From contig JAJTWR010000311.1 of the NCBI GenBank assembly GCA_021613335.1, positions 707,001-771,000 on the forward strand: a stretch of 64,000 nt of DNA, read 5' to 3'. Below are positions 40,580 to 64,000 of the stretch, one piece after another (within the stretch, counting starts at the first letter, position 1; each line of letters begins with the position of its first letter). The translations under genes were made by a program, and so were the position numbers. Source of the stretch: Whitmania pigra. Taxonomy: Eukaryota > Annelida > Clitellata > Hirudinida > Haemopidae. A model generated the notes under the pieces. That model saw only the letters and a program-made list of their open reading frames with translations, did no database searches and was not told the DNA's origin.

Positions 40580-41946
40580 ATGTTGTCTTTCTTCATCCTA
40601 AGCATACTTTTGATATCTGGTAAGAATATGTTGATCTTTTAGTTTGTTAACTATTTTATTAAAATATTCTCAACATTTCGATGAAGGTTCTTTTGCCAAA
40701 ACTGCTCCCCACATCGTTGGTGGTAAAGATGCTGATGATGGAGAATGGCCTTGGCAGTTAGCTTTGTACTCACTCAACCAATTTAGCTGTGGGGCTTCCA
40801 TCATTGGACCCACTTCGGGCATCACTGCTGCTCATTGCGTTGAAGGACTATTGTAAGGATGTACTTTCATATAGAACACATCTTCATATTCCAGCTTTAT
40901 TAATTATCTGGTCTGTGAATATAAAATCATCTAAAGAGATAAAAACTAAATTACTAATGCCAAAATAGTTAAAAGAGAACATAATGCTTTGATATGTTTT
41001 ACAGGAAGGGCTATAGCATCATGGCAGGATCCAACAACGTCGGAGATGACTGCAATTCTCTAGAGTGTTTCAAAAGAAGCCTTACAAAAGCCGTTTTAGT
41101 TTGTACACTTTAGACATGTTTAGGACTTCAAATAAGCAATTTCAAATAAAAAAGCTTAGCTGCTAATTAATAAAATATTTCACATGACAAATAAAGATTT
41201 TAAATAAAAATATTTTTGTTTAAAGCACCCAGATTACTCAAGAAATTCTTCAGCGGGTTATCCAAATGACATAGCCGTCATCTCATGGGAAGAACCTATT
41301 CCAGAAAGTACTGGGAAAGTAAATGTCAAATATGTCCCACGGGCCACAGATACCAACCAAGTTGGAAAGAATTGCTTCATTACTGGATGGGGAAGACTTC
41401 GCGGTGAGAATATTTTAATAAACAAGTAATCTTTTTTTTAAAAAAAGCTTTAAAGTTTATGTGAATTAATATACATAACCAAATATGTGTGTACTAAACA
41501 GGGTTCGGGCCCCTTCCAACCCGGCTTCAGGAGGCAGATATTGATGTTTTAACGAGGGAGGAATGCGCACAAAAATGGGATGAGAGTTTGATTTCAGACA
41601 AACATGTATGTGTGACTGATAAAGAGACCCAGGCCAAAGGATCATGCAATGTAATTTTTTTTTCTACTCACGTAAAGTGTTAAAAATAACAATTAGATAT
41701 TAGAATACCAACAATTTTCATTATTTTTTTTTAAATTTAGTTCTACGGCTTTCATTAATTATAATATAAATCACTACTCAGGGGGATTCTGGAGGACCGT
41801 TGGTTTGTGAAGTTGCCCCAAGTAAATACGAATTGGTTGGAGCAACATCATGGGGTTCATTTGGTTGTTCAACAACAAGACCTTCCGTTTACACAAGAAT
41901 AAGCTCCTACAACACTTGGATTGATTCTGTCATTAATCCCGAGTAA
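40580..41946 (+). CDS. Secreted chymotrypsin-fold serine protease D, intact, six exons
   Basis: Exons 40580-40619, 40687-40852, 41005-41098, 41226-41403, 41502-41650 and 41782-41946 join in phase (792 bases, 263 residues). Signal peptide MLSFFILSILLIS; IVGGKDADDGEWPWQLALYS; TAAHC; NDIAVISWEEPIP; NCFITGWG; SCNGDSGGPLVC. Compared with C it has TRLQ for TMLQ after exon 5 begins and a shorter C-terminus ending INPE. Introns 3-5 are nearly the same as in C while the promoter resembles A, so it is a mosaic of the two subgroups. This gene is the left outer flank of the palindrome; its mirror partner is the minus-strand protease at the right edge. Confidence 0.93.
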
Positions 41947-42539
41947 ACTGAAATTGCTGATTTGGTCTAAATCCAAAAAGTTAATAGCAAATTTGAAAAA
42001 GACAAATTGGAAAACTCACGTTTTATTCGTTTATATTTGGTGTTTGAAAATAAAAAACATTACCCATTGATTAGTCAAAACTGTGTTATTTAATGAAAAT
42101 GAAGATGCTAATTCTTAATTAAAGCAATATCCAAAAAATACTGAAATATCGAATATCCAGCTCTCATAGAAACATTTTGTATGAAAAATAGTCTGCATTG
42201 GATTATTTTATTTGTAAGTGAACAATATTACCTTGATTAATTGATTACATTGATTAATCATAACTGTGTTAGTTAATGAAAATGTTGATGTTAATTCTTC
42301 AATAATTAAAGCAATATAAAAAAATAGCAATATCCATAATCCAGTGCCACAAACATTCAATGTAGGCGCGAATAATTTGCGGCTATTTGTAGGCTATTTT
42401 GCAAAAAAAGCTAACAGGTTATTCAAAATAATAAAGACGAAATAGTGAAAAGGTGAAAAAATGAGCATAATTCCCACTCTCATTATGGGTTATTGCATAA
42501 TGAAACATCAAATCTGTCGCAAAAAATATTGTAATTGAA

Positions 42540-45500
42540 GCTAACACTTGATAAAAAAGATGCACATAATGAAGAAATAAGTTGTGTGCTCTCGTGTATA
42601 GTCTGATGATTATGACTCTGACGATGGATACGAACCAGAGACTAAGCTATAAGACGACTTTTTCAGGAATTCCTCCAATTGAAAATTAAAAAGATCAAAT
42701 AGACACAAATGAAAATACAGTTATACTCCGCCTAATGCCTCAAACAGCAGACGTTCCGTGTAACGAATTCCATCATGAAAGCTCTGGGGCCTCGAATAAT
42801 GAACTCGTTTTACACAGCGAAAGCCTTCCATGCGTTCTGGTGTTAACTAACTACAGGGTTTCCCCGATAATAAGACAGTGTCGTATATTAATTTTTGCTC
42901 TAACAGAGGCGTCAGAGCTTATTTATGGAAGATATATTATATTTTCATTACACAATTTGACATAAAAATCAATTGGAAATTGTGCGGGGGTGGAACGAAT
43001 TGCGTTCGTTAAGCGTGGGACTGTATATCTCTATTTTCACAACGCATGTCACAAAATGAAAATGTGACAGTAATGACAACATTCGTAATGTATCTTGTTT
43101 AACCCAATCTATAATGCTCTCAGGTTTTACATACATTTTCACAAAAATTCTCAAAAGACGTTATTTAAAATTCATAAGAATTTTATTCAAATGCAAATTT
43201 AATTATTGAATTAAACAATTAATAGTCCAAAAATTGATATTTATATCTTCATTCTCTAATATTCTTCTTCTTCTTCTCCCCCGAGGAAGTAAGAAGGCTC
43301 TTCTGGATATGGTGGCTGAGTCGGGTAAGGTGGCTGAGTCGGGTAGGGTGGCTGAGTCGGGTAAGGCGGCTGAGTCGGGTAAGCTGGTTGAGTCGGATAT
43401 GCTGGAGGTGCTGGCTTCTGTTTGTAGACGTCAGGCTTCTTGTAGGGTGGTTCGTATGCCTGGCTATGGTACTTTGGAGCTTTGTAAGGCTTGATTTCAA
43501 CATCATCGGCTGTTGGTAGACGTTGAACCAAAATACGTGCTTTAACCAAATATTGATCAGGAGCCAATGATTTGATCTCAAAGTATCTCTTGTAATCTCC
43601 AAAGAGGTTCAGGTTATCATAGCAGGATTCGTACCACCAACCACCGAGATACACCTAAAAACATCGAAGAATTACCGTTTAACGAGAGTCCGACAAACAC
43701 TACTTTGAAGCGCATGCATGCATTTTAATGTCTAATGTAGAAATATTAAATATACTTTTAAAAATTAAAAAAAAAACACAAAAACAAAAAATAACTAAAA
43801 TTCATTGACATTAATGCTGGTAAGAACATACCTTGGCACAATTGCTGTAAAAGCTTTGATCGTTGTCATGGTCGTAAGTAGAAAACGGTAGTCCATCTTT
43901 TTGGCCAGATGAATTGGTGTTGAGATAAAGAGCGTAATTGCGTCCTTCTGAAGCCACCACAAGTTTGGGCGATTCAATGTCCACTTTCTTTCCGGCTGTA
44001 TTACAATGAATTCAAGTTTGATGGTGTCAGTCAAAACATAACAGCATAAAACTAATTAATATTCCACAATGAAATATCAACAACTAACCTTTAGTCACAG
44101 CCTCGATTGCTCCGTAGTAATTTCCAGCTTTGGTTAGACAGTGCAAATGTTCATTACCGATGTGGTAATCTTTTGATGGAGATCCGAAGCCAGCTTTAAA
44201 CTCATTCCAGTTTTTGTTGAGACTGAAGTCTTGTTTCTCTCTGTTGAACACAACAAACCAGTTGTTGACGCACGATCCCTTTATGGATCCGCAGCCGGGC
44301 ACAGTGAGAGCGAAATCGCTCGCGGGTGCGAATATATCTGAAAAAATATTAGGTTAAAATAATTTCTGTTAGCCAGAAATAGAGAGACATCGCACTCACG
44401 TCTTTGCTTCTCACAGTATTTGAATTCAACTGGTTCTCCTTCGCAATATTCGATGATATTCTTTCCATACACTACATTATTTTCCAGCAAACACTGCCTG
44501 TTCCTCTGATGGAATGGCTTGACGCCACAAATCTCTGTACAGCCAGACCATTCGGTCCATGGAGACCAATTATCTGACAGTTTAAAAACGTCATTATTAA
44601 GTAATCGTCAGAGATTAATTTAAAAATGTTTAGACATTGACAAGATATGTAAATAAGATGATTTTCGACTCACCACAGCTAGTTTCAAAACAAAATTTGA
44701 CTTCTGAAGCAGGTCCCACACAAGCTTTTCCACCATAAGAAGCTTCGGGGCTATTGCATTCCCTGGCTCTTGTGGTGCTGCCGCCGTAACCGCAAGTCTT
44801 ACTGCAGGCGGACCAGGTGGACCACGAACCCCAGCCTCCATCGACGGCTTAACGTAGTTAATTCAAATCATATTTTTTGCTTCACAGAATCAAAATAAAT
44901 GTTAACATTCTCATAAATTTTAGAAACTTGTAAAAGTATAATATTAGAAGTAAAAACGATGGTTGTTTTATACCGCATGGAGAGGCACTGCAATTTTTGG
45001 CTTCAGTGAAAGGTCCGACGCAGTTCTTGCCGTAGTATTGCGGAGCAGGATTATCGCATTTCCTATTACGAGTTGTTATGCCATAATCTCCGCAAGTGAC
45101 GCTGCACGTTGACCACTCAGACCAGTTGTTCCAGTTTCCATCGACATCTGTCGGGATGCAAATCGCACAATATTATAAAATGTATTACATATGAATAGAA
45201 AAAATGTTATTTGTTAAAATAACGCAATGGTTCACCGCATGGTCTAAGGTTGCATGTTTTGGCTTCAGTGTCGTCTCCTTCGCACGGTCTGCCACCATGA
45301 GCGGTGGACGGATTTTGACAGGTTCTCTGTCTAGTCGAGGTACCTTCCGAACACGTAGCACTGCACGGAGACCATTGCCCCCAGCTGGTCCATCCGCCAT
45401 CGACAGCTAACAATTAGAAACGATCGAAAGTAAAGACATTAGATTTGAATAATACCAGAAATACTCACGGCACGGCTTGACATAGCAGGATTTGGATTGG

Positions 45501-63188: not shown

Positions 63189-63629
63189 ACAATATTTTTT
63201 ACGACAGATTTGATATGTCATTATGCAATAACCTAAAATGAGATCCCTTACCGTGGGAAATATGCTCATTATTTCATCTTTTCACTATTTCGTCTTTATT
63301 ATTTTGAATAACCTATTAGCTATTTTAGCAAAATAGCCTTTTCCATGTGATTTCATGTGTACGTCAATTTTTCCTTATCTAATATTAAATAAATTATTCG
63401 CGCCTATATTGAACGTTTGTGGCACTGGATTTTGGATATTGCTATTTTTTTATATTTTGATATAACATCAACATTTTCATTAAATAATACAGTTTTGATT
63501 AATCAATGGGTAATATTGTTTATTTTCAAACACCAAAAATAAACGAATAAAACGTGAGTTTTCCAATTTGTCCTTTTCAAATTTGCTATTAATTTTTTGG
63601 ATTTAGACAAAATCAGCAATTTCAGTTTC

Positions 63630-64000
63630 CTAGGGCTTAATGACAGAATCAATCCAAGTGTTGTAGGAGCTTATTCTTGTGTAAACGGAAGGTCTTGTTG
63701 TTGAACAACCAAATGAACCCCATGATGTTGCTCCAACCAATTCGTATTTACTTGGGGCAACTTCACAAACCAACGGTCCTCCAGAATCCCCCTGAGGAAA
63801 ATTTGAGCAGATTAATTTAATGATTACCGATTAGTTACAATGACTAAAACTCATTAACGTGCTATAAATTTTGAATCTCTTCAGTGGTCGCGAACGCAAA
63901 ATATTACTTACGTTGCACGATCCTTTGGCCTGGGTCTCTTTGTCAGTCACGCAAACCTGTTTGTCTGAAACTAAACTTTCATCCCATTTTTGCGTACACT
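63630..64000 (-). CDS. Serine protease paralogue E, 3' exons only (cut by window edge)
   Basis: Minus strand: exon 5 from beyond 64000 to 63912 (SVYTQKWDESL-type region ending KGSCN) and exon 6 at 63791-63630 (GDSGGPLVCEVAPSKYELVG, SWGSFGCSTTRPSVYTRISS), with stop TAG at 63630-63632. Exon 5 and intron 5 resemble protease A (including the GCGTTCGCGACCACTGAAGA intron block), while exon 6 resembles B, C and D. The stop truncates the usual C-terminal extension at IKP. It is the mirror image of protease D and closes the palindrome. Whether the rest is intact lies outside the window. Confidence 0.85.

What the first reader, a model, noticed from the sequence alone, without database searches (positions are those of the whole stretch)
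40580..64000. Head-to-head 1,930-residue genes in a >11-kb-arm palindrome with a homogenised core
The two genes mirror each other around about 52,706, with introns, UTR and 3' flank apparently identical over about 9 kb. Both the inner part (promoters, signal exons, introns 1-2) and the outer part (flanks and proteases D/E) are clearly diverged. A single recent duplication would give uniform similarity. An old inverted duplication with arm-to-arm gene conversion limited to the middle explains a divergent-identical-divergent pattern. This resembles palindrome maintenance known from mammalian sex chromosomes, here at a secreted-protein locus.
Basis: partly seen in the sequence, partly recalled or inferred. 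Interest (0 to 1): 0.9.

Follow-up and report, generated by a model that had tools for sequence, protein, structure and literature searches.

The report
Mirror-image leech genes with overwritten middles
In what is likely a leech genome, two mirror-image genes, both predicted to make nearly the same large secreted protein, show no letter substitutions over 8,000 bases including introns while their start regions and outer neighbourhoods differ, most likely because one copy overwrites the middle of the other by gene conversion, as is known from a few fly and worm gene pairs.

Summary
Two head-to-head 32-exon gene models (1,931 and 1,913 residues: signal peptide, YPEPPK repeats, about 24 TSP1 domains, C-terminal fibrinogen domain) mirror each other around 52,705. 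Between 43,203 and 51,275 there are 0 substitutions in 8,072 aligned bases, introns included, and one T-run indel. Best explanation: arm-to-arm gene conversion of an old pair. The signal exons and exon-3 start differ at 12 of about 19 synonymous sites, nearly as much as dispersed paralogs, and introns 1-2 are largely unalignable. Inverted homology continues to about 26.8 kb (left) and 77.1 kb (right, beyond the window), through a chymotrypsin-type protease array, mostly at 5-8% substitutions per site. So there are three ages: old centre, unchanged gene body, intermediate outer arms. That suggests an older copying event running outward, then recent conversions limited to the gene body. Closest precedents are Drosophila Amy and Hsp70 pairs. 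An assembly or polishing artefact is not excluded, because no reads were available. The best protease hits are leech.

The parts
43203..51275 (.). Left copy of the zero-substitution core (gene body from 53 bases past the stop codon to the last YPEPPK repeat of exon 3)
   Evidence: 0 substitutions in 8,072 aligned bases, one 1-base T-run indel at 43,767
54137..62208 (.). Right copy of the zero-substitution core, inverted
   Evidence: partner of 43203-51275
42525..51698 (.). Left near-identical arm (BLAST match)
   Evidence: 98.57% over 9,175 columns with 62886-53774
53774..62886 (.). Right near-identical arm
43256..52134 (-). Left gene model, 32 exons, 1,931 residues, predicted secreted TSP1-array/fibrinogen-domain protein
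   Evidence: splice model by script and hand, open without internal stops
53413..62155 (+). Right gene model, 32 exons, 1,913 residues; last 1,814 residues identical to the left protein
   Evidence: Pfam TSP_1 with 23 stretches and Fibrinogen_C
52107..52134 (-). Left coding exon 1 (signal peptide), diverged
   Evidence: 5 of 28 bases differ from the right copy
53413..53440 (+). Right coding exon 1 (signal peptide), diverged
51768..51794 (-). Left coding exon 2, diverged
   Evidence: 6 of 27 bases differ
53607..53633 (+). Right coding exon 2, diverged
51033..51640 (-). Left exon 3 with YPEPPK hexapeptide repeats (608 bp); the identity ends in its last repeat
   Evidence: first inner differences at 51,276, 51,279 and 51,291; 18-base tandem array 51267-51608
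53826..54379 (+). Right exon 3 with YPEPPK repeats (554 bp, 18 codons shorter)
52627..52637 (-). Left TATA-like motif TATAAAAGGGG
   Evidence: lies in a 39-column stretch 79% alike with the right one
53210..53220 (+). Right TATA-like motif TATAAAAGGGG; about 570 bases lie between the two
62881..63190 (.). 310-base insertion in the right arm only; transposon-like (my reading)
   Evidence: two relatives at about 88% near C52:1,891-1,893 kb
40687..41946 (+). Protease P4: chimera, 5' part like right-arm P5, 3' part like left-arm P2/P3
   Evidence: windowed identities; exon model
37971..39261 (+). Protease P3 (chymotrypsin-type, Pfam Trypsin)
   Evidence: mirror partner of P6 beyond the window at 0.081 substitutions per site
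29877..31089 (+). Protease P2, a 98-99% copy of P3
23986..25878 (+). Protease-like P1 (no full model obtained, possibly degraded), 0.060-0.065 substitutions per site from right-arm P5
63630..64000 (-). Protease P5, continuing beyond the window to about 64,928 in window coordinates (L009)
26845..27584 (.). Outermost left block with an inverted partner (75.2-77.1 kb in window coordinates)
   Evidence: 0.061-0.064 substitutions per site

Best explanation
Two head-to-head genes, each predicted to encode almost the same secreted protein of about 1,900 residues, show no substitution over 8 kb of exons and introns but are diverged at their promoters and signal exons, most likely because arm-to-arm gene conversion keeps overwriting the gene bodies and stops inside the N-terminal repeat exon. 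Shown: the inverted pair, the zero-substitution core, the strong divergence of the 5' ends, and mirrored outer blocks mostly at 5-8%. Inferred, step 1: an old inverted TSP1-gene pair existed. Step 2: at the age given by 5-8% divergence, a long templated copying event (like long-tract conversion or break-induced copying) started in the gene body and ran outward through the protease array, giving both arms matching outer flanks. Step 3: later, shorter conversions reset the 3' flank (now 1.6%) and, most recently, the gene body (0%). The inner limit would stay put because introns 1-2 and the spacer no longer match and the hexapeptide arrays differ in length, so strand exchange cannot pass. The likely outcome is one protein body under two independently evolving promoters and signal peptides.
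For: Zero substitutions in 8,072 bases (95% upper bound 0.037%) beside 11/670 and 13/142 on the outer side. Signal exons: L-R differ at 11/55 bases; the other five pairs among L, R, C370 and C52 differ at 13-21/55. Signal exons plus exon-3 start: 12 of 19.3 synonymous sites differ, JC-corrected dS 1.32 (0.97 for signal exons alone), against 0 of 1,189 synonymous sites in the shared body (Fisher P 2.6e-24). Introns 1-2 show no alignment beyond splice edges and short, chance-level hits, while 2,643 bp of core introns have no substitution. Outer inter-arm estimates: 0.049, 0.061, 0.064, 0.069 and 0.081 substitutions per site in mirrored-order blocks out to 26.8/77.1 kb, and 0.060 and 0.065 for P1-P5. 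By DNA search, copies of the protease were found only on this contig. A second conversion signature lies next door: P4 is a chimera, and the last exon of P5 is 99% P3-like in that window. Precedent: fly Amy and Hsp70 palindromic pairs, with concerted evolution in Amy confined to coding sequence in the melanogaster group (PMC3924832).
Against: One assembly and no reads: consensus polishing could have erased a small true divergence. Direction and number of conversion events are not determined. The dS of the 5' end rests on about 19 synonymous sites. A GC-bias signature expected from long-term conversion is unclear: GC at 461 shared four-fold sites is 0.330 against 0.308 and 0.312 in the paralogs, AT-to-GC against GC-to-AT changes there are 40:24 (C320), 32:25 (C370) and 28:15 (C52), GC3 is slightly lower (0.419 against 0.440 and 0.432), and core introns are richer (0.289 against 0.244 and 0.239). 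The outer picture is not tidy: P4 against P5, the nearest proteases, is 82.4% and P4 against P6 87.4%, which needs the mosaic explanation, and P1 lies outside the outermost mirrored block.
Confidence: 0.75

Rival explanations
1. The perfect identity is partly an assembly or polishing artefact: two real but slightly different gene bodies were given the same consensus.
For: Identity is exactly 0 substitutions over 8 kb; some published leech assemblies use nanopore reads polished with Racon and Pilon (PMC10087013 passages; not known to be this assembly).
Against: Differences of 1-3% survive in the same locus (P2/P3 99.05% and 97.8%; 42,532-43,201 11/670). The two copies differ by one base in a T run, so they were not literally pasted. 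Both lie inside a 1.50-Mb contig with different flanks on every side, and a 2.2-kb piece of the core found two 100% places in the assembly, both here. A true body divergence like that of the 5' end or the outer arms would be unlikely to be erased.
Confidence: 0.12
2. A single recent inverted duplication of the gene body was joined to an unrelated older 5' end, without conversion.
For: Gives a sharp inner break and an identical body.
Against: Both 5' ends are homologous and in register: signal exons, splice phases, TATA region and exon-3 start. Joining in register inside the repeat exon is homologous replacement, i.e. conversion in effect. Outer flanks at 5-8% in mirrored order are more diverged than the body, so they were already paired before the body became identical.
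Confidence: 0.05
3. An original palindrome of at least 25 kb formed once and old; the 5-8% outer similarity reflects recurrent arm-to-arm conversion along the whole arm, not one outward copying event.
For: Protease paralogs within the locus do exchange sequence (P4 and P5 mosaics); tracts over 9 kb are known in the human Y palindrome P6 (PMC3723533 abstract).
Against: Seven outer estimates spread over 25 kb cluster at 0.049-0.081; independent patchwork events should scatter more. Stretches with transposon-like frames in the left arm (31.8-36 kb) have no mirrored partner.
Confidence: 0.3
4. Strong purifying selection or a locally low mutation rate keeps the bodies alike.
For: The protein is well conserved (84.7% and 82.8% mean exon identity to the C370 and C52 paralogs, 23 exons each).
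Against: Synonymous sites between these paralogs are saturated or nearly so (dS infinite and 3.74), yet between L and R neither 1,189 synonymous sites nor 2.6 kb of introns carry a substitution.
Confidence: 0.01

Closest known systems
Drosophila Amy-p/Amy-d and Hsp70 palindromic pairs (review PMC3924832)
   Same: Tightly linked inverted paralogs, older than their identity; in Amy of the melanogaster group, concerted evolution is confined to coding sequence while flanks evolve independently
   Different: Here the homogenised tract is an 8-kb gene body of 29 whole exons with unchanged introns, and the outer arms share a third, intermediate age; no species comparison yet
C. elegans/briggsae/remanei inverted gene pairs (PMC1803023)
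   Same: Invertebrate divergent pairs with near-perfect inverted identity, attributed to active maintenance
   Different: In its divergent example the intergenic arms next to a 126-bp spacer are kept at 95.7-99.2% within each species; here the centre is the most diverged part
Capitella teleta Dlx pair (PMC3199776)
   Same: Annelid, linked inverted pair with patchy gene conversion
   Different: Tail-to-tail, with conversion judged limited to parts of the homeobox and adjoining intron
Mammalian sex-chromosome palindromes (P6, PMC3723533)
   Same: Arm-to-arm conversion, multi-kilobase tracts, near-perfect arms
   Different: Those palindromes exceed 99.9% arm-to-arm; here only the gene body does, outer arms are 92-95% by substitutions (90-93% counting gaps), and no sex linkage was tested
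Folsomia candida palindromes (PMC5490193)
   Same: Gene-bearing palindromes in an invertebrate genome, with conversion suggested
   Different: In the passages seen, the Dscam2 palindrome has a synonymous rate of 0.2 and no identical core is mentioned

Membership tests
Palindromic gene pair under concerted evolution (Amy/Hsp70 type) | Closely linked paralogs in inverted orientation | tested here: met
Palindromic gene pair under concerted evolution (Amy/Hsp70 type) | Gene body far more alike than flanks | tested here: met
   0/8,072 in the core; 5-8% in most outer blocks, near saturation inside
Palindromic gene pair under concerted evolution (Amy/Hsp70 type) | Duplication older than the identity | tested here: met
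   5' end dS about 1.3 on few sites against 0 of 1,189 synonymous sites in the body
Palindromic gene pair under concerted evolution (Amy/Hsp70 type) | Paralogs within a species closer than orthologs between species; shared polymorphism | not testable with these tools
   no sister genome or population data held (no relatives)
Sex-chromosome-type palindrome | Arms above 99.9% alike over their whole length | tested here: not met
   outer arms 0.049-0.081 substitutions per site
Sex-chromosome-type palindrome | Location in a non-recombining sex-linked region | not testable with these tools
   unnamed contigs; leeches are hermaphrodites (recalled)
GC-biased gene conversion | Raised GC at neutral sites of the converted region | tested here: inconclusive
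   control introns 1-2
TSP1-repeat secreted protein | Array of TSP_1 domains | tested here: met
   PF00090 E 1.6e-207, 23 stretches
Fibrinogen-related domain (FReD) | Fibrinogen_C domain | tested here: met
   PF00147 E 3.2e-20; angiopoietin-1 chains and ficolin-3 head the list of solved relatives
S1 (chymotrypsin-type) protease | Trypsin domain with H, D, S motifs | tested here: met
   PF00089 E 1.4e-51 for P3; TAAHC, NDIAV, GDSGGP seen (motifs recalled)

The most novel reading that the evidence does not exclude
The locus is a 'one body, two switches' device: repeated conversion, walled off by the hexapeptide-repeat exon, keeps two copies of a large matrix-type protein identical while promoters and signal peptides diverge freely. 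An earlier break-copy event that started in the gene body carried the protease array to the other arm, so the palindrome is oldest at its centre, the reverse of classical palindromes.
Probability: 0.3. Interest if true: 0.62.

Novelty: new member of a known kind. Interest (0 to 1): 0.45.

Why it matters
It is a clean natural case in which conversion, not recent birth, can be read from a single genome, because the same gene carries an old part (synonymous sites near saturation) and a zero-divergence part. It offers a testable place to ask what stops conversion tracts (loss of matching sequence, or selection for separate promoters), and it shows that age estimates of duplicate genes from their coding bodies can be wrong by orders of magnitude. 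It also adds a probable leech locus to the invertebrate examples.

Tried and rejected
Chance or a smooth identity profile: rejected, with a sharp inner break and a stepped outer edge. Palindromic-read artefact centred on a hairpin: rejected, because the 2,075 bases between the near-identical arms (51,699-53,773) are mostly not alignable with their own mirror. Selection alone: rejected by unchanged introns. GC-bias test: inconclusive. A search for other long proteins with the fibrinogen/Pro-rich C-terminus: 748 candidates, none at E <= 0.001, so no second species with this architecture was found there. The full-length search gave general TSP1 arrays (best 120 of 1,777 listed). COX1 to name the species: four hits, of which I read three as bacterial-type; no motif-bearing frame was printed for the fourth. 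The protease search then pointed to leeches: the top five of 120 listed hits are Helobdella robusta, 51-62% identity. 18S search: not completed. Leech saliva as a clue to function: in passages of PMC7191736 ficolins are named among salivary proteins and 'thrombospondin' does not occur; not conclusive. Gene conversion plus leech in the paper library: 80 papers, 15 listed, none of those titles about a leech genome; that search does not prove absence. Structure prediction was not used. In the outer distances I used the main matches; two short off-register matches in the same call (0.132 for P3-P6, 0.118 for P1-P5) were left out as repeats out of line.
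Full report
What the sequence shows. The window is part of contig C320 (1.50 Mb) of a 178-Mb, 381-contig genome assembly, at 707,001-771,000, so the locus is far from any contig end. Self-comparison finds the inverted match 42525-51698 / 62886-53774 at 98.57%. Per 100 bases it is 97-100% from 42,600, exactly 100% over nearly all of the gene bodies, then breaks sharply in the repeat exon near 51,276 and is about chance level from 51,800. Position by position, the substitutions at 43,202 and 51,276 bound a stretch of 8,072 aligned bases with none; the only difference is one base in a T run in the last intron.

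The genes. A splice model built from the sequence alone gives two 32-exon genes, left on the minus strand (52,134 to 43,256; 1,931 residues), right on the plus strand (53,413 to 62,155; 1,913 residues), each open without internal stops; the last 1,814 residues are identical. There is no transcript evidence. Each has a predicted signal peptide over exons 1-2, a tract of YPEPPK-type hexapeptides in exon 3, about 24 TSP1 units by exon count (Pfam TSP_1, 23 stretches, E 1.6e-207 for the right protein), a Fibrinogen_C domain (E 3.2e-20) and a C-terminal YPTQPP tract. The length difference (18 residues) equals the 54-base length difference of exon 3. The fibrinogen domain resembles angiopoietin-1 and ficolin-3 by sequence. 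I infer a secreted matrix, mucus or lectin-like protein; that is not tested.

Relatives in the same genome. Two further genes with the same layout lie on C370 (about 1,572-1,581 kb) and C52 (about 1,897-1,909 kb). Against the right gene, all 23 TSP1 exons searched match in order in each, with mean amino-acid identity of 84.7% and 82.8%, and synonymous sites saturated or nearly so (dS infinite and 3.74). No second copy showed up in the 30 kb fetched around each (matches of at least 120 bases listed).

The centre is old. In the signal exons left and right differ at 11 of 55 bases; the other pairs differ at 13 (L-C370), 16 (L-C52), 16 (R-C370), 21 (R-C52) and 15 (C370-C52). Adding the start of exon 3, 12 of 19.3 synonymous sites differ (dS 1.32; 0.97 for the signal exons alone), with few amino-acid changes (dN 0.06). 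Short stretches remain similar (77-79%) around exon 1, exon 2, the exon-3 start and a TATA region; introns 1-2 otherwise give only short, chance-level hits. The sample is small, but the contrast with 0 of 1,189 synonymous sites in the shared body is very large (Fisher P 2.6e-24).

The outer arms have an intermediate age. Fetching the neighbouring 60 kb shows that inverted homology continues in mirrored order: 39,778-40,857 with 64,758-65,962; 37,414-39,788 with 67,279-69,654; 36,015-36,235 with 69,652-69,878; 26,845-27,584 with 75,226-77,141. Inter-arm substitutions per site are 0.081 (P3-P6), 0.069 (39,778-40,231), 0.049 (40,246-40,857), 0.064 and 0.061 (26,845-27,584), and 0.060 and 0.065 for P1-P5, which is not in mirrored order. 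These blocks carry chymotrypsin-type proteases (Pfam Trypsin for P3); by DNA search, protease copies were found only on this contig (best candidates scored; other contigs matched a repeat at the query's end and, on C184, one 40-base stretch), so diverged proteases elsewhere are not excluded. Between the near-identical arms and this level lie 11/670 (1.6%) and 13/142 (9%). P4, next to the left gene, is only 82.4% like its opposite number P5 and 87.4% like P6 over the blocks found, because it is a mosaic: in its first two windows it is 86-97% like P5 and 68-71% like P2/P3; from 40,866 to 41,821 it is 89-100% like P2/P3 and, in six of seven windows with data, 68-80% like P5 (96% in the seventh); the last exon of P5 is in turn 99% like P3. 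So the poor match of the nearest proteases across the centre is largely a result of exchange within the locus.

Interpretation. No change in introns and synonymous sites beside a 5' end near saturation requires that the bodies were made alike long after the pair arose. Because outer flanks are alike to 92-95% by substitutions over blocks spread along 25 kb while the centre is hardly alignable, at least one older, longer copying event must have run outward from the gene body, or the outer arms were paired later than the genes. I favour a break in one gene body repaired from the inverted partner, with copying outward, followed by shorter conversions. The inner limit coincides with sequence that can no longer pair (length-variable repeats, unalignable introns); selection for separate promoters would give the same limit. 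Known conversion tracts reach this size: in human palindrome P6 the mean is 2,068 bp and the maximum above 9 kb (PMC3723533, abstract).

Tests that did not help. GC-biased conversion would predict raised GC: four-fold sites 0.330 against 0.308 and 0.312, with AT-to-GC against GC-to-AT changes 40:24, 32:25 and 28:15 in C320, C370 and C52; GC3 slightly lower than in the paralogs; core introns 0.289 against 0.244 and 0.239; introns 1-2 are 0.223 (L), 0.170 (R), 0.278 (C370) and 0.222 (C52). I call this inconclusive. Neither the direction nor the number of conversions can be read from one genome.

Artefact. No reads were available. For a real duplication: different flanks on all sides, a mostly non-palindromic centre of 2.1 kb, a T-run difference between copies, and the survival of 1-3% differences elsewhere in the locus. 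A residual true divergence of a fraction of a per cent erased by polishing cannot be excluded.

Organism. The five best hits of the protease are Helobdella robusta proteins (51-62%), followed by an Enchytraeus protein (53%) and unnamed metagenome proteins; I infer a leech or close clitellate, species unknown. Leeches are hermaphrodites (recalled), so a sex-chromosome explanation is not called for.

Known precedents. The review PMC3924832 (passages and section 10 read) describes palindromic Hsp70 and Amy pairs, with Amy homogenised in coding sequence while flanks evolve independently. PMC1803023 (abstract, part 1 of 2 of Results, Discussion) describes inverted nematode gene pairs. PMC3199776 (passages) describes a converted inverted Dlx pair in an annelid. 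PMC5490193 (passages) describes gene palindromes in a springtail. The present case is a new member of this kind, with an unusual three-tier age profile.

Noticed in passing
window 40,480-42,390 and L009 (P4/P5 proteases): P4 is a chimera of two protease types and the last exon of P5 matches the other type at 99%: a second, separate trace of conversion in the array.
   Followed up: partly
window coordinates 69,875-74,699 and 83,431-87,897 (L009-L010): Direct repeat of about 4.5 kb, 96-98% identical, in the right flank.
   Followed up: no
window 12,627-13,064 (+) and 12,669-13,112 (-): Core-histone open frame of 146 residues (Pfam Histone E 5.7e-24) with a 148-residue antisense open frame without a family match.
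   Followed up: no
window 14,958-16,489 (-): Exons of a sugar transporter (Pfam Sugar_tr).
   Followed up: no
window 17,721-18,584 (-), 31,800-34,500 (+), 34,867-37,184 (+): hAT dimerisation domain (17.7 kb) and reverse transcriptase (32.2 kb) by Pfam. The frame 34,867-35,700 had no Pfam match; calling that stretch hAT-like is my reading.
   Followed up: no
window 23,039-23,869: 416-base unit repeated twice in tandem at 99% within a transposase-like fragment (the label is my reading).
   Followed up: no
contigs C115, C49, C360, C47 of the same assembly: COX1 genes open in the standard code, three of which (C115, C49, C360) I read as bacterial-type: bacterial contigs, one of 2.9 Mb, seem to remain in the assembly.
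   Followed up: partly
window 62,881-63,190: 310-base insertion present only in the right arm, with relatives on C52 at about 88%: a possible marker for dating the last homogenisation of the 3' flank.
   Followed up: partly
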